A program made the translations under genes and the position numbers. A stretch of DNA of 64,000 nucleotides, from assembly GCA_022641835.1 (NCBI GenBank), contig CP048715.1:1116001-1180000 (forward strand), in the 5' to 3' direction. Every line of letters begins with the position of its first letter. Position 1 is the first letter of the stretch. Shown here in pieces: positions 733 through 11,167 of this stretch. Source of the stretch: Petasospora fabianii. Lineage: Eukaryota; Ascomycota; Saccharomycetes; Phaffomycetales; Wickerhamomycetaceae. The notes under the pieces are model-generated. The model saw only the letters and a program-made list of their open reading frames with translations, was not told where the DNA came from and ran no database searches.

Positions 733-3516
733 ATGACCACTCAATCAGACCCGCCCACACCAAATCCACTCACGGCGCTTGAGGATACGAAGCGTCAGCT
801 CGATGAGGCCCTTTCACAGGTGTCTCCTGATTCGGCTTCCATCAATGGTTTTCTCAACTACGCTAGAGGACGTTTCCATCAGTTGATTGTTGAAGATGTT
901 GAACAGACAGTTGGTTCCATCAAGGACGCTACAGATCTTAATCTCGCTCAACCGAACGGGGCTACGCCACCACAGCTCGGAGCTGAGGCTCTTATAGATA
1001 AGATGTGGTCTGACTTTCTCCATCCAGTCTTCAAATACTACTCAGCACAACAGCATGTCCTTTTTCAACGCTCACAACGAAGCAAAAGAGGTAAGCCAGT
1101 AGAACTAAGGAAGCTCAATGAAAAATTCCTGAAAACTACCAAGATCTCCCGTGATTTCTTCTTTGGCATTCTTGAATACATTCTCACAAACTTTGATCTT
1201 GGTCCAATCATTCCAGATAAGTTCTATGACTTCCTCAAACTCAAGCTTAACACTAACGCAGTTGATGTTCCATCCACTAACCAGACTGCCATCGTGAAAA
1301 TTGTCTACATTTCCCACCGCTCCATGCTTCTCATAGGTTCTACATCTCGCTATCGCTCTACAATGGCCCAACATCTTACACCTGACTCGAAAGAGGACTT
1401 TCACCAGGCACTTGACATGTGTCAGCATGCCGAGCTTCTTCTCCCAGCCTTTGGTGAGGCTCGTAACCAGATCGGTATGATCTACAAATCTCGAGAGTCT
1501 CAAATTCTCGCCGCTTATGAATTCATGAGATCAGCTGCCTCGAGGATCCCATCATCAGTCGGTGCTAAGAATTTACAGGCCATTCTAAGAACTCCAACGC
1601 CCGTGGTGGAGGTGCTCAACAAACTGAGAATTCAAAACAAACCAACCTTGGAGACAAGGAATTCATATATTTCAACCTACTTTCTTGCCTTGTATGGATA
1701 CTATCTGGCACCAGAATCATGGATGCGTACAGAAGGAATTATCATCAATGGAACAAAACTTGAGGATTTGGTATCCGATTTTTTCAAATTGCTTCGTCCA
1801 CTTGCATTTGAAGGCGATGAAACCTTTCTATTTGAAAAGATTTTCCTCATGCTCACTGCTGGTATATCTGGTCTCGAAACTCATGAGGCAAACTCCATCA
1901 CTGATGAATGTAAATCTCTATTGAAGTTCACTCTCAAATACGTTGTCTTTATGGAAGAATTATTCGTTGAGATGTTGAATGCCGATAACGCAACAGGTTT
2001 CAAGCTTCTCCCGCTACTGAGAATTATCTTCTCCTGGTTGAAGGTCTCGAAAGCTGGTGTCTACTATGCTCATAGAAACTTCCATTTCTTAGTCGGCACT
2101 ACCAAGTTGGCCAACTTATTAATGAAGGAATTCACTGAAAAGGAGTTGTCGAAGAAACCGAAGAGGGAGCAGTACTTCAAAGAAGATGTGAGCGTTCGAG
2201 AGTTCACACCAATTGATCGGATGCTATGTGACTTCAGTGACAACCACATATTCCAAGATGCAGAGAGTCAAACCCGTCTCATCGGTGCCTATATTGAGCA
2301 TGATGAGATTGAAGAGACCAAGTTGAGACTCCACGCTGTTGCTTACATGTCCAAAAAGATTCTATTATCTCGTCCAAATGGTGTCAAGTATGACTCAGAG
2401 AAGAGGGAAATTGAGTTGGACAAGCAAATCGTGGACACTTTCAAGAAGATCAAAGCTAAGATGGCACAGTCATCAAAGTCTAAACGTACAGACATATCCG
2501 ATTCCGGCAAGAAGAAAGAAGAAGTTCGCCAGCCAAAGACTGTTGTTGGTATAACCGGTGACCCAATCACCCGCGGTAAAGCCAGTGGTAATGGCAGTGC
2601 AATGTCATCGCAAGTTACGAGTCGTGAATCTACTCCTACTGCCACTAACAAACGTTCTAGTCGGAAGACACGGAAGTCCATTCCTGTCACCAAAGGACAC
2701 TCTTCTGATGAAAGTGATGCCGAATCAATCACTGAAGAAGTGTTTAATAGTCATAAGTTTGCTGCTCTTCAACTAAAGGAGAAGGAGGAAAAGGAGAAGG
2801 AGAACCAAATGAAGGCTGATTCACAAGCACCAGTGATGACTGAACAGGACCTTGAAGACAGAATGGCCAACGCTAAGCGCAGTTTGTTTGCTACTATGCT
2901 CAATTCACTCGATGATGACAAGAACTTTACGGATCCGAAAAATGCTGCCGCCTCTTCTAATGACAAGAACGATGTTGTTAAGTCCAACTGGGATCAAAAT
3001 GTGAACACACCTCAACGCAACCAACAAAACCAACAACAACAACAAAACTTTTCTGCATTTGACGCTGGATTCAATGGCGTCTTCACCCCAAACCCACCTT
3101 CGAACAACCAAGCCAACTTTGGTTATAGCTCTGTCTTCCCAGAATACCAGAACTACTACCCAATGTATCAAACTCTAGGTGGTGAACAACCCAATGCCAC
3201 TCCCATTACCCCTCATACGCAAGTGCAACAGACACCACAGAACCAATCCTACCAACAATCTGCCGGCGTCTACGGTAACACAAATCAGGATCTTCAAATG
3301 CCACAAGTTACAAGGTATCCACAACAATCACCATTTAGAATGTATGAAGCTACTGTCCAAGTTCCTGGAACTCCAACTCAGAATGCACCACAACAAACTT
3401 TTGCAGTTCCACAGGTACAGCAGTATCAACAATACCAACAGTATCAACAGTATCAGCAGTATCAGCAGTATTCACAGTTTGGGCAATCTGGGACATTCCA
3501 AGGATATCAGCAATGA
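733..3516 (+). CDS. EST1: EST1/EBS1-family protein (SMG5/6/7-like)
   Basis: A 927-residue protein of the Est1/SMG7 family. The N-terminal 14-3-3-like helical domain carries the family pattern of a buried 'HRSMLLIGSTSRYR' helix, then 'LLPAFGEARNQIGMI' and 'SRIPSSVGAKNLQAIL', which align with Est1 'VRIPSKCALNNLKDFI'. A later 'REQYFKEDVSVREF' segment matches the Est1 'FREDIIFREF' block. The last 300 residues are low-complexity, with basic-acidic linkers, Q/N-rich stretches and a QQY tandem repeat at about 895-915. Est1 recruits and activates telomerase; its post-genome-duplication paralogue Ebs1 acts in nonsense-mediated decay. A non-duplicated yeast should have one gene, which may serve either or both roles. 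At 927 aa it is closer in length to Ebs1 (about 880) than Est1 (about 700). The first in-frame ATG is at 733. Confidence 0.85.
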   Translation: MTTQSDPPTPNPLTALEDTKRQLDEALSQVSPDSASINGFLNYARGRFHQLIVEDVEQTVGSIKDATDLNLAQPNGATPPQLGAEALIDKMWSDFLHPVFKYYSAQQHVLFQRSQRSKRGKPVELRKLNEKFLKTTKISRDFFFGILEYILTNFDLGPIIPDKFYDFLKLKLNTNAVDVPSTNQTAIVKIVYISHRSMLLIGSTSRYRSTMAQHLTPDSKEDFHQALDMCQHAELLLPAFGEARNQIGMIYKSRESQILAAYEFMRSAASRIPSSVGAKNLQAILRTPTPVVEVLNKLRIQNKPTLETRNSYISTYFLALYGYYLAPESWMRTEGIIINGTKLEDLVSDFFKLLRPLAFEGDETFLFEKIFLMLTAGISGLETHEANSITDECKSLLKFTLKYVVFMEELFVEMLNADNATGFKLLPLLRIIFSWLKVSKAGVYYAHRNFHFLVGTTKLANLLMKEFTEKELSKKPKREQYFKEDVSVREFTPIDRMLCDFSDNHIFQDAESQTRLIGAYIEHDEIEETKLRLHAVAYMSKKILLSRPNGVKYDSEKREIELDKQIVDTFKKIKAKMAQSSKSKRTDISDSGKKKEEVRQPKTVVGITGDPITRGKASGNGSAMSSQVTSRESTPTATNKRSSRKTRKSIPVTKGHSSDESDAESITEEVFNSHKFAALQLKEKEEKEKENQMKADSQAPVMTEQDLEDRMANAKRSLFATMLNSLDDDKNFTDPKNAAASSNDKNDVVKSNWDQNVNTPQRNQQNQQQQQNFSAFDAGFNGVFTPNPPSNNQANFGYSSVFPEYQNYYPMYQTLGGEQPNATPITPHTQVQQTPQNQSYQQSAGVYGNTNQDLQMPQVTRYPQQSPFRMYEATVQVPGTPTQNAPQQTFAVPQVQQYQQYQQYQQYQQYQQYSQFGQSGTFQGYQQ

Positions 3517-6092: not shown

Positions 6093-7382
6093 TCACAAAG
6101 ACTTAATGATATCAACAGTAATCTGACACAGTTTCTTCAGATCATCTTCCTTGATCACGAATGGTGGCATAATGTACACCAGTTTACCAAAAGGTCTTAC
6201 CCAAGCACCTTTATTAACGAACATCTTTTGAAGAGTCTCTGTTTCAAATGGTCTTTTGAGTTGAATGACAGCTAATGCTCCGATACTTCTAAGATCATCA
6301 ACAAGTTCAACATCTCTAAGCTTATCAAGTAAATCAATCTTGAAAACTCTTTCGATATTACTAACCTGATCTTGCCACTCGTTTCTCATCAAGATCTCAA
6401 GACTCTTGTTAGCAACAGCACAAGCTAAAGCGTGTCCCATATATGTTGGACCGTGAAAGAATCTCTTGGATGGGTTCTCACACACCGTTTCAGCAACATC
6501 ACGAGTCATAAGACAAGCAGAAAGTGGAAGATATCCACCGGTGAGTCCCTTACCACACAACAAGATATCTGGTACGATATTAGGATGTTCAAGGGCAAAC
6601 ATCTTAGAAGTTCTTCCAAATCCTGTAGCAATCTCATCTAATATAAGCAACACGTTGAATTCATCACACAGTTCTCTAACATCTCTGAGAAACTGTGGAT
6701 GATAGATTCTCATACCACCAGCACCTTGCACAATTGGTTCCATGATAACAGCAGCAATCCTTTCATGATTCTCTTCAAGTGACTTTTTCAGTGGGATAAT
6801 ATCTCCTGGATTGTATTCACCATCAAATCTTGATTTTGGTGCTTCAACGAAGAAATTCTGTGTTAAGAACCCAGAATAGTTTCTATGCATTGAGTTGACA
6901 GGATCACAAATCGACATAGCACCAAAAGTATCACCATGATATCCATAATTAATGGTTAAAAACCTATCCTTTGGCATATCTGTTTGCTTTAACTCACGTT
7001 TACCTGCCCAATACAGATGTGCAAGCTTTAGGCCAACTTCAACACAGACACTTCCAGAATCTGCATAAAACACACTATCGAGTTCCTTTGGTGCCAAAGA
7101 CAACAACTTCTTGGTAAGCTCCACACCTGGCTCATGAGATGTACCGGCGAACATGAAATGAGTAAACTTTGGAACTTGATCATAGATTGCCTGGTTCAAC
7201 TCTGGGTTGTTATAACCATGGATCTGATTCCACCAACTGCTCATACCATCCACTAATTGACGACCATCTTCAAGAGTAATAATGGCTCCTTCTGCCTTGA
7301 CAATCGGGTATGCCGGGATTGGATTCACAATCGAGGAATATTGATGCCAGATGTGCTTCTTGTCGAATTCAATATCAATCAT
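6093..7382 (-). CDS. BIO6: BIO6-like: diverged BIO3/BioA-type aminotransferase
   Basis: A 429-residue class III PLP aminotransferase, clearly related to BioA/Bio3. PLP chemistry looks intact: D249 in 'DEIATGFGR', Schiff-base K278 in 'GKGLTGG', 'GYHGDTFG' at 147-154 and W50-W51 in 'MSSWW'. The residues lining the substrate and SAM pocket differ from E. coli BioA and from the neighbouring BIO3. 'MFAGTSH' (77-83) replaces 'MFGGITH', 'HGPTYMGHALAC' replaces 'HGPTFMGNPLAC', 'GKGLTGGYLPLSA' replaces 'GKALTGGYVTLAA', and 'HQY' replaces 'HPY'. In S. cerevisiae BIO6 is a neofunctionalised BIO3 duplicate needed for making 7-keto-8-aminopelargonate (KAPA). The divergence here and the shared promoter with the BIO1-like gene support that role by inference. 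A plain second DAPA aminotransferase is the alternative. Confidence 0.75.
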   Translation of the reverse strand: MIDIEFDKKHIWHQYSSIVNPIPAYPIVKAEGAIITLEDGRQLVDGMSSWWNQIHGYNNPELNQAIYDQVPKFTHFMFAGTSHEPGVELTKKLLSLAPKELDSVFYADSGSVCVEVGLKLAHLYWAGKRELKQTDMPKDRFLTINYGYHGDTFGAMSICDPVNSMHRNYSGFLTQNFFVEAPKSRFDGEYNPGDIIPLKKSLEENHERIAAVIMEPIVQGAGGMRIYHPQFLRDVRELCDEFNVLLILDEIATGFGRTSKMFALEHPNIVPDILLCGKGLTGGYLPLSACLMTRDVAETVCENPSKRFFHGPTYMGHALACAVANKSLEILMRNEWQDQVSNIERVFKIDLLDKLRDVELVDDLRSIGALAVIQLKRPFETETLQKMFVNKGAWVRPFGKLVYIMPPFVIKEDDLKKLCQITVDIIKSL

Positions 7383-7772
7383 GTTATGACAAAACCTTGG
7401 TTTAGCCTATGGTATAGGTTAACAGAGAGGAACAAGAATCGGTAAGGATATCAGGCCATCTTAATAGAAAGGGGGAAAAAGAAAAAAGGTCCCAACAAAA
7501 AACACTCTTGTTGACTCATCAAAGCCTACCAAGGTCATCTGTCCACATCAGCAACCTCCTTATGACTACTATTGGATCCCACAATTCAAGAGAATCCATT
7601 GGTTGTCGATCTCTCGGTAAGAACCTGAGTCATTCCCCGATTGGGTAATTTCGGGGAGTCATGGGGCATGCATCCACTTGCATTTATCTCTCAACATTCT
7701 GTTATAGAAATGACTACGTTTGGGTTATAAAAGGGGAAAGATTGCAAAGAAAGCAAGCAAGATGCTCTCTGT
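7383..7772. promoter_or_regulatory. Divergent promoter of BIO6-like and BIO1-like genes
   Basis: A 390-bp bidirectional promoter. It holds two Gcn4/AP-1-type sites, TGACTCA (7512-7518) and TGAGTCA (7626-7632), and a further AGTCAT near 7656. A 7-bp inverted repeat TCCCCGA (7634-7640) / TCGGGGA (7651-7657) with 10-bp spacer resembles a zinc-cluster regulator site. AATTTCGGGGAG (about 7647-7658) resembles AATTTCGGGAGG in the BIO3/BIO4 promoter. A TATAAAA box (7726-7732) serves the BIO1 side. Confidence 0.65.
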
Positions 7773-8906
7773 ATGTCCCTAAGTTTTTTGGATAAACTTT
7801 TTACCAAGAAAATGACACATATAAGTAACTCGGAGTATCAGGGCCTCACAACCACCAAGACTCTTCATAGACTAAGTTTCTACACTTTGGACACAGATGT
7901 CAAAGAGAGAGAAGCTGATGCTACTCCAAGCCTTCAAGAAACCAAAAAAGTTGAACTTAAGATCCCAGAAGACAAGCCAGAGGTGCCAAAAGTGACTATT
8001 GATGAGTTAACTCTTTCCAAAGAAGCAGGTACAGTCGAGGCAGTTTCCTCCATCTTGGAGAAATATGGTGTCTGTGTTGTCAAGAATCTTTTCAACAAAG
8101 AACAGGTCTCTCGGATTAATTCAGATTTGAATCCTGAATTTGAAGCGAGAAAGAATGATCCACGTCTTTTCCCAAAGGAGACCATAAGAGTCACGGCATC
8201 TGTTGCTCGTTCCCCAGCTGTCGTGAGAGAAGTGTTAAACAATCCACTCCATGTTGCCATCTCTGAGAAGTTCCTTGCCAAGAAGAATGCATTTTGGATT
8301 GGTGAGAACATCAATATTGGATACAGTCCTTCTATCGTCTCAAGTTCCATTGGGTTTAGAGTAGGTCCTGGGTCCCAACTCCAGGCTCTACACAGAGATG
8401 ACCACTCTGAGCACAATGTCAACGTTGAGACTGAAGAGTACATCTATGGAAGAGAGACACAGGTTGGAATCTCAGTGGCACTGAGCAATGTCACCAAGGA
8501 GAATGGTGGAACTAGATTCATTCCAGGATCCCATTTGTGGGATCATTTAAGACAACCACATGAGGAGGATTGTATTCAAGTTGAAGGACTTGAGGAAGGA
8601 GATGCCTTTTTCATGCTAGGTTCCGTTTTCCATGGTGCTAGTCGTAACTTGACCAAAGATGAGTTTAGAACTTTGCTGATTCTATTTATGTGCTCTAGTA
8701 CCTCAAGACAAAAGGAGAACATCTATTTAGAGACTCCTATTGAGTACTGGAGACAATTCACACCACAGGAGATGAGACTTCTTGGATTGAGTATGAGTGA
8801 GCCATTCAGTAACATGTTGGAACTGCAAGACCCATTGATCAAGATTAAACCTGGATATGTCAGACGCAGTAACTACAGTGATGTTTGTAAAGTAGTTCGT
8901 ATATAA
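7773..8906 (+). CDS. BIO1: BIO1-like phytanoyl-CoA dioxygenase-family protein
   Basis: A 377-residue PhyH-family Fe(II)/2-oxoglutarate oxygenase. The metal triad is H207-x-D209 ('LHRDDH') and H287 ('VFHGAS'), with R299 the likely 2-oxoglutarate anchor and 'GTRFIPGSHLW' the conserved strand between them. In S. cerevisiae BIO1, needed for the first dedicated biotin step, is a paralogue of YJR154W, a PhyH protein; the family and its position between BIO6-like and BIO3 make BIO1 the best call. A dioxygenase here implies oxygen-dependent formation of the pimeloyl precursor (inference). The start is uncertain. An upstream ATG at 7762 opens a 6-codon frame overlapping this ATG, and GTATGT at 7771 could be a 5' splice site joining MLS to G24 (intron 7771-7841, in frame). 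Residues 1-70 are poorly conserved. Confidence 0.8.
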   Translation: MSLSFLDKLFTKKMTHISNSEYQGLTTTKTLHRLSFYTLDTDVKEREADATPSLQETKKVELKIPEDKPEVPKVTIDELTLSKEAGTVEAVSSILEKYGVCVVKNLFNKEQVSRINSDLNPEFEARKNDPRLFPKETIRVTASVARSPAVVREVLNNPLHVAISEKFLAKKNAFWIGENINIGYSPSIVSSSIGFRVGPGSQLQALHRDDHSEHNVNVETEEYIYGRETQVGISVALSNVTKENGGTRFIPGSHLWDHLRQPHEEDCIQVEGLEEGDAFFMLGSVFHGASRNLTKDEFRTLLILFMCSSTSRQKENIYLETPIEYWRQFTPQEMRLLGLSMSEPFSNMLELQDPLIKIKPGYVRRSNYSDVCKVVRI

Positions 8907-8907
8907 A

Positions 8908-10200
8908 TTATTGTTGAGAATCAAACAATGTGACAACTTCCATCAATGCATCAATTAACGTATCGAGTTCATCTGTAGTGATGACATATGGTGGCATAAT
9001 GTAAACGAGCTTACCAAATGGTCTTATCCAGACACCTCTCTCAACAAATTGCTTCTGGAACCAGGTCATATCAACTGGTTTGTTAAGTTCAACAACACCA
9101 ACGGCACCGAGAACCCTGATATCACGAACCACAGAGAGTCCAGTGAGCTTTCCGAGTCTCTTGAGCTGCGACTCAAGACGTGGAACTTGTGTTTTCCACT
9201 CACTTCTCATAAGGATATCCATACTCTTGGAGGCAATGGCACATGCCAGTGGATTACCCATGAACGTGGGTCCGTGCATCATTGAGCCTCCAGTCTGCTT
9301 GTCTGACCCGATAGTATCAGCGATATGTCTCTGACACATAACTGCAGCTAGAGTGACATATCCACCCGTGAGTGCCTTTCCAACAGTAATGATATCTGGA
9401 ACAACACCAGCATGTTCATAAGCGAAGAGCTTACCGGTGCGTCCGAATCCAGTAGCAATCTCATCAAAGATGAGTGGAATGCCAAACTTGTCACACAGCT
9501 GACGAACCCTGACGAGATATGTTGGATGGTACATCCTCATTCCTCCAGCACCTTGTAAGATTGGTTCCAAGATCACAGCTGCAATTTCATTATGATTATT
9601 CTCCATTTTGTCTTTGAAATCAGCGATATCGTCCTCATCCCATTCCTCATGGAATCCTGTCTGTGGAGCCCTTGCAAAGATGTTAGTGGACATATATCCA
9701 GCGTACAACGAGTGCATCGAGTTGACTGGATCACAAACTGACATTGAACCAAACGTATCACCATGATATCCCTTCTCAATAGTTAAGAATTTGGTCTTCT
9801 CGGGCTTTCCTAGGGCATGAGCATGCTGAATAGCCATCTTTAAGGCCACCTCCACACTCACGCTTCCGGAGTCTGCGAGGAAGCAGCAATCAAGTTTGTC
9901 ATCGGTCATTGAGAGCAGCTTCTCCACAAGCTCTACTGCAGGCTTGTGAGTGATTCCACCGAACATAACGTGTGACATCTTGGAGATTTGTTCCGTTGCA
10001 GCGAGGTTAAGCTCTTGGTTGTTATACCCATGGATGGCACACCACCAAGAGGACATGCCATCGATGAGTTGGCGACCGTCACTAAGAGTCAAGGACGATC
10101 CCGAAGCGGAAACGACCTCATAACATGGTAATGGTTTGGTAAGGGAGGTGTAAGGATGCCAGATGTGCTCTTTGTCGTATTGAATGGTATCAGTGGGCAT
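8908..10200 (-). CDS. BIO3: BIO3, adenosylmethionine-8-amino-7-oxononanoate aminotransferase
   Basis: A 430-residue DAPA aminotransferase, very close to E. coli BioA along its whole length. It has 'HIWHPYTSLT' with Y17, 'GMSSWW' at about 48-53, 'SHVMFGGITH', 'GYHGDTFG', 'DEIATGFGRTGKLFAYEHA', PLP lysine in 'GKALTGG', 'HGPTFMGNPLAC' and 'GVWIRPFGKLVYIMPPY'. It transfers the SAM amino group to KAPA to give 7,8-diaminopelargonate. The bacterial-type enzyme entered yeasts by horizontal transfer, but codon use now matches neighbouring genes. Its stop codon is 1 bp from that of the BIO1-like gene, and it shares a 346-bp divergent promoter with BIO4. It differs from the BIO6-like copy in pocket residues, so the two are long-separated paralogues. 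Confidence 0.95.
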   Translation of the reverse strand: MPTDTIQYDKEHIWHPYTSLTKPLPCYEVVSASGSSLTLSDGRQLIDGMSSWWCAIHGYNNQELNLAATEQISKMSHVMFGGITHKPAVELVEKLLSMTDDKLDCCFLADSGSVSVEVALKMAIQHAHALGKPEKTKFLTIEKGYHGDTFGSMSVCDPVNSMHSLYAGYMSTNIFARAPQTGFHEEWDEDDIADFKDKMENNHNEIAAVILEPILQGAGGMRMYHPTYLVRVRQLCDKFGIPLIFDEIATGFGRTGKLFAYEHAGVVPDIITVGKALTGGYVTLAAVMCQRHIADTIGSDKQTGGSMMHGPTFMGNPLACAIASKSMDILMRSEWKTQVPRLESQLKRLGKLTGLSVVRDIRVLGAVGVVELNKPVDMTWFQKQFVERGVWIRPFGKLVYIMPPYVITTDELDTLIDALMEVVTLFDSQQ

Positions 10201-10546
10201 GTTTATAGTGGAGTCGAGGTGGTGGGATTCAGGGTAATGATGTTAGCACCGCAACAAGATGGAAATTTCGGGAGGAAAAAAGGGTCAGTTATAAAAGAGA
10301 GCAATATATTGAGTTTCAATGATAAATGACTCAAATATCATTGGTCGTTATGTTGAGAATTGGGGAAAAGTTGGTTGTTGAGATCGAGGCATATGCAAGT
10401 TGAGGAGTCATATGACTCAATTGCGTAATCGTCTCTTTGAGTCTCTTTTGTTGGGCAGAGATTTTCTCTCTTTATATATAAAGAGAGAGTAGTTTAGATC
10501 CCTTTAACAAGTTACAAGTCTTTTGAAATGTCTAGAAGTGTCCATA
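10201..10546. promoter_or_regulatory. Divergent BIO3/BIO4 promoter
   Basis: Contains TGACTCA (10327-10333) and a perfect 14-bp palindrome GAGTCATATGACTC (10405-10418) built from two abutting AP-1/Gcn4-type half-sites, with an A completing TGACTCA on one side. AATTTCGGGAGG (about 10265-10276) matches a core of the BIO6/BIO1 promoter. TATATATAAA (10473-10482) is the likely BIO4 TATA box. A Vhr1-type AATCA-N8-TGAYT element was looked for and not convincingly found. Confidence 0.65.
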
Positions 10547-11167
10547 ATGCCAGCTGTGTTTGTTACTGGAACAGATACCGACGTTGGAAAGACATTTGTC
10601 TCGGCAGTTCTCTGTAAAGCATGGGGTGCTTCCTACTGGAAGCCCGTGCAAACCGGTCTTGACTCAGATCCTGGTGATACCAAGACTGTTAAAGAGCTAG
10701 TTGGCAAAGATCTCATCACTTTTAAGCCACAGGTGGAGCTTCAGAAGCCCTTGGCTCCCTGGAGGGCTTGTGTACTTGAAGGTGAGCCCTTCTTGAAGCT
10801 GGAGGACTTTAAGCTTCCAAAGACTAATGATCCATTGATTGTTGAAGGAGCCGGTGGTGTTTTCGTTCCATTGACAAAAGAACTAATTACAAAAGACTTG
10901 GTGAAGCAGATTGATTGTCCAGTTATCGTTGTGGCTAGATCACAATTGGGTACTCTCAACCATACGCTTCTTACTCTCGAGCATCTTCGGGCCCATGATG
11001 TAAAGATCCTTGGAGTTATACTTAACGGTAAGATTGACGAAGACAACTGCACAGCATTAAAGGAGCTTGGTGTGAAAGTTATTTGTCAAATACCATTGGC
11101 TTCAAGTGTTGATGAGGTAACTCAGCTTGTACCATCTCTTACGGAGCTTATCAACGATTATAATTGA
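10547..11167 (+). CDS. BIO4: BIO4, dethiobiotin synthetase
   Basis: A 206-residue ATP-dependent BioD-type enzyme that closes the ureido ring of 7,8-diaminopelargonate. The P-loop 'VTGTDTDVGKT' is immediately N-terminal, the substrate-binding 'YWKPVQTGLDSDP' follows, then 'VEGAGGVFVPLT' and 'RSQLGTLNHTLLTLE', the standard order of the family. The first in-frame ATG is at 10547; the frame extends 24 bp further upstream only through a TTG. An out-of-frame ATG at 10528 could open a frame overlapping the start, so transcription may begin between the two. It is transcribed away from BIO3 and converges on PPT1 with a 51-bp gap. Confidence 0.95.
   Translation: MPAVFVTGTDTDVGKTFVSAVLCKAWGASYWKPVQTGLDSDPGDTKTVKELVGKDLITFKPQVELQKPLAPWRACVLEGEPFLKLEDFKLPKTNDPLIVEGAGGVFVPLTKELITKDLVKQIDCPVIVVARSQLGTLNHTLLTLEHLRAHDVKILGVILNGKIDEDNCTALKELGVKVICQIPLASSVDEVTQLVPSLTELINDYN

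What the first reader, a model, noticed from the sequence alone, without database searches (positions are those of the whole stretch)
6093..11167. Four biotin genes in one 5.1-kb block: BIO6-like, BIO1-like, BIO3, BIO4
The sequence shows a BIO3-type aminotransferase paralogue, a PhyH-family oxygenase, a canonical BIO3 and a BIO4 with no other gene between them. In S. cerevisiae the BIO1-BIO6 and BIO3-BIO4 pairs are separate, subtelomeric and strain-variable (from memory of that literature). Here all four are joined and flanked by UME6-like and PPT1, ordinary conserved genes. This may be the ancestral arrangement or an independent assembly, and it makes biotin prototrophy (given BIO2 elsewhere) a single-locus trait from the pimeloyl step to dethiobiotin.
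Basis: partly seen in the sequence, partly recalled or inferred. Interest (0 to 1): 0.85.

Follow-up and report, generated by a model that had tools for sequence, protein, structure and literature searches.

The report
Four-gene yeast biotin synthesis cluster
A yeast (Cyberlindnera fabianii) keeps four of its biotin-making genes side by side in 5 kb in the middle of a chromosome; part of the layout is shared with related yeasts, and two of the four genes look wrong for the jobs the textbooks give them, which makes an old gap in yeast vitamin synthesis easy to test.

Summary
Window 6093-11167 carries BIO6, BIO1, BIO3 and BIO4 as two divergent pairs that meet tail to tail, 1 bp between the BIO1 and BIO3 stops. 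The yeast is Cyberlindnera fabianii. The PhyH gene is CfBIO1, already shown in print to give S. cerevisiae fast, oxygen-dependent growth without biotin: its published cloning primers match the window exactly. BIO2 is unlinked. The block lies about 1.1 Mb inside a 3.1-Mb contig, not subtelomeric. Trees put BIO6 and BIO3 in one yeast-type clade apart from bacterial BioA. I propose, untested, that BIO1 and BIO6 make KAPA by oxygenation and transamination. A new arrangement of known genes, moderately interesting.

The parts
6093..7382 (-). BIO6: class-III aminotransferase, BIO3 paralogue, 429 aa
   Evidence: ORF;-6 families; tree (BIO6 branch 100/100); residues; fold
7383..7811 (.). Shared divergent promoter of BIO6 and BIO1 (429 bp) with TGACTCA at 7512, TGAGTCA at 7626 and GGAGTCAT at 7655
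7812..8906 (+). BIO1 (CfBIO1): PhyH-family 2-oxoglutarate/Fe(II) oxygenase, 364 aa; start codon at 7812 rather than 7773
   Evidence: (published primers match), tree, fold
8908..10200 (-). BIO3: DAPA aminotransferase (BioA type), 430 aa; stop codon 1 bp from that of BIO1
   Evidence: (99% to Cyberlindnera fabianii CYFA0S15e00760g1_1)
10201..10546 (.). Shared divergent promoter of BIO3 and BIO4 (346 bp) with TGACTCA at 10327 and 10413 and GGAGTCAT at 10404
10547..11167 (+). BIO4: dethiobiotin synthetase (BioD type), 206 aa, one copy found
   Evidence: (TIGR00347 over cut-off)

Best explanation
This is an internal biotin-synthesis gene cluster of Cyberlindnera fabianii. BIO1 and BIO6 supply KAPA, BIO3 turns KAPA into DAPA, BIO4 closes DAPA to dethiobiotin, and the unlinked BIO2 makes biotin. 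The genes are paired on two divergent promoters, and at least BIO6, BIO1 and BIO3 were inherited together by related yeasts. BIO3 descends from a bacterial BioA and BIO6 from a duplicate of the yeast gene. BIO1 is an oxygenase, so the pathway needs O2. Shown: gene families, their order here, BIO1 function and the oxygen need (by others, in S. cerevisiae), no BioF found. Inferred: functions of BIO3, BIO4 and BIO6 in this species, the bacterial origin (literature), and the age of the whole four-gene block.
For: Species: BIO3 is 99% identical to a named C. fabianii protein. The gene-specific parts of CfBIO1 primers 13963 and 13964 of PMC7267198 match the window at 7812-7839 and 8879-8908 without mismatch. 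That paper reports that CfBIO1 sufficed in a Scbio1 deletion strain, with 0.36 per h without biotin, and that growth without biotin failed anaerobically (passages read). Families. BIO2 is on C7, over the bioB cut-off. Linkage by equal contig length: BIO1+BIO6 in 7 of the 14 BIO6-type rows; BIO1+BIO6+BIO3 on lengths 46502 (W. ciferrii), 11127 and 11145; BIO6+BIO3 on 118065; BIO1+BIO3-type on 4433, 7735 and 36428 in the Pichia group. Trees: 30 BIO3/BIO6 rows against 40 other BioA rows, bacterial where named, 100/100; BIO6 one branch, 100/100; BIO6 with the Vibrio-type BioA rejected, p-AU 0.013.
Against: Linkage in other species rests on equal contig lengths of protein clusters, not on DNA that I could read; gene order there and BIO4 were not seen. 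Seven of the 14 BIO6-type rows had no BIO1 row of equal contig length, and Millerozyma has BIO1 and BIO3 rows on contigs of different length. No S. cerevisiae BIO1, BIO3 or BIO6 sequence was in the trees, which are unrooted. I have no expression or knockout data for C. fabianii. WcBIO1 from a close relative did not support growth of S. cerevisiae (PMC7267198), so orthology does not guarantee the same activity in a new host.
Confidence: 0.9

Rival explanations
1. Textbook reading of the first half: BIO1 is a pimeloyl-CoA synthetase and BIO6 a KAPA synthase that joins pimeloyl-CoA and alanine, so the cluster runs from pimelate.
For: This is the annotation in SGD (PMC10158836) and in the legend of the pathway figure of PMC7267198.
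Against: BIO1 is a PhyH-type oxygenase by sequence and by predicted fold, with two histidines and an arginine of the recalled metal and 2-oxoglutarate site invariant in 45 of 45 rows. BIO6 has the DAPA aminotransferase fold and eleven recalled catalytic residues in 14 of 14 rows; BioF-type KAPA synthases are another family. [quoted passage not shown]
Confidence: 0.1
2. The four genes were brought together independently in this lineage, not inherited as a block.
For: Other yeasts hold other combinations: BIO1-BIO6 and BIO3-BIO4-BIO5 in S. cerevisiae, BIO2-BIO3-BIO4-BIO5 in C. albicans (PMC2880306), so these genes do move and re-cluster. Not every relative showed linkage (7 of 14 BIO6-type rows).
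Confidence: 0.1
3. BIO6 is a second, separate acquisition from bacteria rather than a duplicate of BIO3.
For: BIO6 is as close in raw identity to gammaproteobacterial BioA (55-56%) as to BIO3 (53-54%).
Against: Tree: BIO3 plus BIO6 on one side of a branch at 100/100; BIO6 with the Vibrio group is rejected, p-AU 0.013. Only that one alternative placement was tested.
Confidence: 0.04

Closest known systems
S. cerevisiae BIO1-BIO6 pair and BIO3-BIO4-BIO5 cluster
   Same: Same gene families; BIO1 with BIO6; BIO3 with BIO4
   Different: There they are two separate clusters (PMC2880306), and BIO1-BIO6 is subtelomeric and absent from S288C (PMC7267198). Here all four are in one internal 5.1-kb block, with PPT1 and not a BIO5 next to BIO4.
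Candida albicans BIO2-BIO3-BIO4-BIO5 cluster
   Same: Internal multi-gene biotin cluster with BIO3 and BIO4
   Different: No BIO1 or BIO6 was found in the Candida species of that study, and the cluster includes BIO2 (PMC2880306); here BIO1 and BIO6 are in and BIO2 is out.
CfBIO1 of Wronska et al. 2020 (PMC7267198)
   Same: The same gene, by primer match
   Different: In the passages seen the paper treats BIO1 alone. 'Synten', 'adjacent' and 'neighbo' occur 0 times; the 'cluster' passages shown concern S. cerevisiae (not every hit was shown).
Bacterial BioA (E. coli DAPA synthase)
   Same: BIO3 and BIO6 share its recalled catalytic residues; BIO6 its fold
   Different: BIO6 has fixed changes at positions that are constant or nearly so in BIO3 and BioA.

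Membership tests
BIO3 / BioA DAPA aminotransferase | Match over the curated bioA cut-off | tested here: met
   BIO3: TIGR00508 564 bits against cut-off 405; NF005940 676 against 625
BIO3 / BioA DAPA aminotransferase | Catalytic residues of E. coli BioA (numbers recalled) | tested here: met
   Y17, W52, W53, Y144, D147, E211, D245, R253, K274, T309, R391 all present in window BIO3
BIO6 (BIO3 paralogue) | Falls in a BIO6 branch distinct from BIO3 and BioA | tested here: met
   9 rows, one branch, 100/100; no S. cerevisiae BIO6 in the set. It passes TIGR00508 (514 of 405) but not NF005940 (605 of 625)
BIO6 (BIO3 paralogue) | Needed for KAPA supply | not testable with these tools
   Genetic evidence is for the S. 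cerevisiae gene (recalled: Wu 2005; not looked up)
BioF-type KAPA synthase | Member of the bioF family in this genome | tested here: not met
   TIGR00858: 0 of 4 hits over cut-off 426; best 308 bits; I read the four as HEM1, LCB2, LCB1 and GLY1 from their sequences. The search ignores introns.
BIO1 | PhyH domain with metal and 2-oxoglutarate ligands | tested here: met
   Pfam PF05721 86.5 bits against 22; H194, H274 and R286 in 45 of 45 rows; the acidic position D196 is in fewer than 42 of 45 and is E in the two Lachancea rows read
BIO1 | Supports growth without biotin | not testable with these tools
   Reported by others for this very gene: PMC7267198 passages; identity to the window gene by primer match
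BIO4 / BioD | Match over the curated bioD cut-off | tested here: met
   TIGR00347 154.9 bits against 83.3
Ancestral four-gene cluster | All four genes linked in related species | tested here: inconclusive

The most novel reading that the evidence does not exclude
Yeast makes KAPA without pimeloyl-CoA and without a BioF-type condensation. BIO1, a 2-oxoglutarate/Fe(II) oxygenase, oxidises a C9 acid to a vicinal oxo compound (7,8-dioxononanoate or its hydroxy precursor). BIO6 aminates carbon 8 to give KAPA. Its parent paralogue BIO3 then aminates carbon 7 to give DAPA. Two sister aminotransferases thus work on neighbouring carbons of one skeleton, which would explain why BIO6 arose from BIO3, why it kept the recalled substrate-carboxylate arginine, why the pathway needs oxygen, and why no BioF is found. 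This would be a new route to KAPA, and the cluster its genetic module up to dethiobiotin.
Probability: 0.3. Interest if true: 0.85.

Novelty: new variant of a known kind. Interest (0 to 1): 0.5.

Why it matters
[quoted passage not shown] A natural block that holds BIO1, BIO6, BIO3 and BIO4 together, in a yeast reported to grow no slower without biotin than with it, gives a ready-made module for reconstitution, and its active-site signatures say what chemistry to test. It also suggests that the S. cerevisiae pairs are fragments of an older cluster, which bears on how vitamin pathways are lost and regained.

Tried and rejected
Vhr1 element (AATCA-N8-TGAYT, recalled): no match inside the cluster even with one mismatch, and fewer matches in the window than chance (14 against a mean of 24.9), although the genome has one Vhr1-family gene. 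Peroxisomal pathway: no PTS1-type end ([SAC][KRH][LM]) on 45 BIO1 rows, 16 rows P0121-P0136 or 13 rows P0241-P0253, so I do not favour it; against that, a protein named KAPA synthase (Bio6) is listed as peroxisome-enriched in Histoplasma (PMC13343957, one passage), and I did not check whether it is a BIO6 or a BioF type. Transfer of the cluster into Nadsonia: its BIO1 and BIO6 are 62% and 70% identical to the window's, across classes, but the two trees place it differently, so it is left open. Whether the BIO6 duplication came before or after the BIO3 lineages split is not resolved (BIO3 as one clade not rejected, p-AU 0.27). Base composition gives no sign of a recent foreign origin. A bias to state: I noticed TGASTCA by eye in these promoters before counting it, so its shuffle test (0 of 5000 reach 4 sites) is after the fact; in the whole window the motif is below the shuffle mean (10 against 18.7) and GGAGTCAT is at it (3 against 3.1).
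Full report
What is there. Window 6093-11167 holds four intact ORFs and no other of 150 aa or more except one antisense ORF inside BIO1 (7934-8443): BIO6-like (6093-7382, minus), BIO1-like (7773-8906, plus), BIO3 (8908-10200, minus) and BIO4 (10547-11167, plus). Coding sequence is 4299 of 5075 bases with BIO1 counted from 7812. The genes form two divergent pairs that converge: the BIO1 stop ends at 8906 and the BIO3 stop codon begins at 8908, so the 3' ends of the two transcripts very probably overlap (inference from the sequence). PPT1 follows on the right and a gene with a C-terminal Zn2Cys6 domain lies on the left. The window lies at 1.116-1.180 Mb of a contig of 3,128,646 bases, so the block is far from the contig ends.

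Which organism. The window's BIO3 is 99% identical to CYFA0S15e00760g1_1 of Cyberlindnera fabianii, now Petasospora fabianii in the NCBI taxonomy. The primers used by Wronska et al. 2020 (PMC7267198; passages read) to clone the C. fabianii BIO1 match the window without mismatch at 7812-7839 and 8879-8908. The paper's table puts that ORF at 1136478-1137572 of scaffold 0, 1095 bp, the length of 7812-8906. The PhyH gene therefore has a published function: in a Scbio1 deletion strain it gave growth at 0.36 per h without biotin, and the CfBIO1 strain did not grow without biotin under anaerobic conditions. The start codon is best placed at 7812: orthologues read begin there, and the near-identical metagenomic protein P0001 is read in another frame upstream.

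The rest of the pathway. BIO2 is present on another contig (C7, over the bioB cut-off). No second copy of BIO1 or BIO4 was found, and BIO3 and BIO6 are each other's only close relative in the genome. No BioF was found: the bioF model gave four hits, 0 of 4 over its cut-off, and their sequences read as 5-aminolevulinate synthase, the two serine palmitoyltransferase subunits and threonine aldolase (my reading). A second, related model (NF005394) gave the first three of these loci again, 0 of 3 over its cut-off. The search is six-frame and ignores introns, so a split gene could be missed.

BIO3 and BIO6. A maximum-likelihood tree of 70 rows puts 30 BIO3/BIO6 rows on one side of a branch and 40 other BioA rows, bacterial where named, on the other, 100/100. 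BIO6 (9 rows) is one branch at 100/100 with a stem of 0.55. BIO6 with the Vibrio-type BioA is rejected (p-AU 0.013); BIO3 as a clade by itself is not (p-AU 0.27). This agrees with the duplication and bacterial origin proposed by Hall and Dietrich 2007 (not held; as reported in PMC2880306); the unrooted tree does not itself show the direction of transfer. I compared 14 BIO6, 21 yeast-type BIO3 and 64 bacterial-type rows, E. coli included. Eleven catalytic residues recalled from E. coli BioA (Y17, W52, W53, Y144, D147, E211, D245, R253, K274, T309, R391) are kept in 14 of 14 BIO6; S111 is T and F393 is N in one row each. Twelve changes are in 14 of 14 BIO6 and under 10% of the others. Eight of them do not appear among the residues that one search printed for the other rows: P16Q, V78F, G81A, T84S, M122L, T282P, T288M, G366A. 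Four occur in a few others: T18S, M75F and F310Y in 3 bacterial-type rows each, A275G in 4 bacterial-type and 2 BIO3 rows. P314A is in 13 of 14. P16 and T18 flank Y17; F310 and P314 follow the G307-T309 loop. The model of BIO6 (mean pLDDT 83.5, 16 sequences) matches E. coli DAPA synthase best, TM 0.93. This looks like an aminotransferase with a changed pocket, not a lost or new catalytic apparatus. Against a simple 'BioA' label, BIO6 misses the NF005940 cut-off (605 of 625 bits) that BIO3 passes.

BIO1. In a 69-row tree the window protein sits in a 26-row clade (100/100) with Cyberlindnera jadinii, Wickerhamomyces ciferrii, Nadsonia and Pichia membranifaciens; the 45 rows of the yeast side, Lachancea included, stand apart from the other 24 rows (19 that I labelled filamentous, one Kuraishia paralogue and four unnamed) at 100/99. 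H194, H274 and R286 are in 45 of 45 rows; D196 is in fewer than 42 of 45 and is E in the two Lachancea rows read. The model (mean pLDDT 92.8) matches fungal 2-oxoglutarate/Fe(II) oxygenases such as TlxJ, PrhA and AsqJ. Nothing in sequence or fold searches suggested a CoA ligase.

Is the arrangement old? I could not read neighbours in other yeasts, so I matched the 'longest contig' lengths of protein clusters. BIO6-type and BIO1 hits share an exact length in 7 of 14 BIO6-type rows (7725, which is C. fabianii's own type, 46502, 11127, 11145, 7816, 802916, 32412). Three of these lengths also carry a BIO3 hit: 46502 (W. ciferrii for all three), 11127 and 11145. BIO6 and BIO3 share 118065. BIO1 and BIO3-type rows share 4433, 7735 and 36428 in the Pichia group. 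The other seven BIO6-type rows had no BIO1 match, and Millerozyma has BIO1 and BIO3 rows on contigs of different length, which speaks against linkage there. Lists were cut at 120 rows. With BIO1-BIO3 linkage in two yeast groups and three-gene linkage in two genera, an inherited block that was later split in Saccharomyces is the simplest account. BIO4 linkage is unknown.

Control. Each divergent promoter holds two TGASTCA sites (7512, 7626; 10327, 10413), 4 of the window's 10, and the BIO2 upstream region holds one; 0 of 5000 shuffles of the two promoters reach four. GGAGTCAT is in both promoters and, read by eye, in the printed BIO2 upstream region. The motif was picked after looking, and neither word is enriched in the window as a whole. 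TGACTCA is the recalled Gcn4/AP-1 site. A Vhr1-family gene exists, but its recalled S. cerevisiae element is absent from the cluster.

Mechanism. The DAPA and dethiobiotin steps by BIO3 and BIO4 follow from family membership. The KAPA step is open. SGD lists BIO1 as a putative pimeloyl-CoA synthetase and BIO6 as a putative KAPA synthetase (PMC10158836), which does not fit the folds. I propose that BIO1 oxygenates a C9 acid and BIO6 transaminates it at carbon 8, followed by BIO3 at carbon 7. This is inference, and I give it 0.3. A different oxygenation, such as chain cleavage to a pimelate-like acid as by the P450 BioI (discussed in PMC7267198), is also open.

Novelty. None of the ten literature searches brought up, in the listings or in the passages read, a description of this four-gene block. 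Of nine papers I read passages only (PMC7267198, PMC2880306, PMC5039597, PMC7563122, PMC9629496, PMC10158836, PMC3364882, PMC7267190, PMC13343957). Two papers that I think most relevant (Hall and Dietrich 2007; Wronska 2021, recalled) are not held, so it may be in print.

Noticed in passing
window 7383-7811, 10201-10546 and L008 2620-3012: TGASTCA sites (2+2+1) and the 8-mer GGAGTCAT recur in both divergent BIO promoters and upstream of BIO2, which suggests shared control by a bZIP or Vhr1-like factor.
   Followed up: partly
window 8906-8908: The stop codons of the convergent BIO1 and BIO3 genes are 1 bp apart, so the transcripts should overlap at their 3' ends.
   Followed up: no
window 7773-7811: The upstream ATG of the PhyH ORF is not conserved; a metagenomic protein (P0001) reads another frame before the Met at 7812.
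   Followed up: yes
P0010 and P0130 (contig length 802916): Nadsonia fulvescens, of another class (Dipodascomycetes), has BIO1 and BIO6 on contigs of one length at 62% and 70% identity to the window's, a possible transfer of the pair between yeasts.
   Followed up: partly
P0036, P0037, P0040-P0043, P0106: Kuraishia capsulata shows seven BIO1-related PhyH proteins among the 120 listed hits, six of them on the yeast BIO1 side of the tree; their roles are unknown.
   Followed up: no
   Followed up: no
window 733-3516: EST1/EBS1-like protein (EST1 and Est1 DNA/RNA-binding domains) near the cluster.
   Followed up: no
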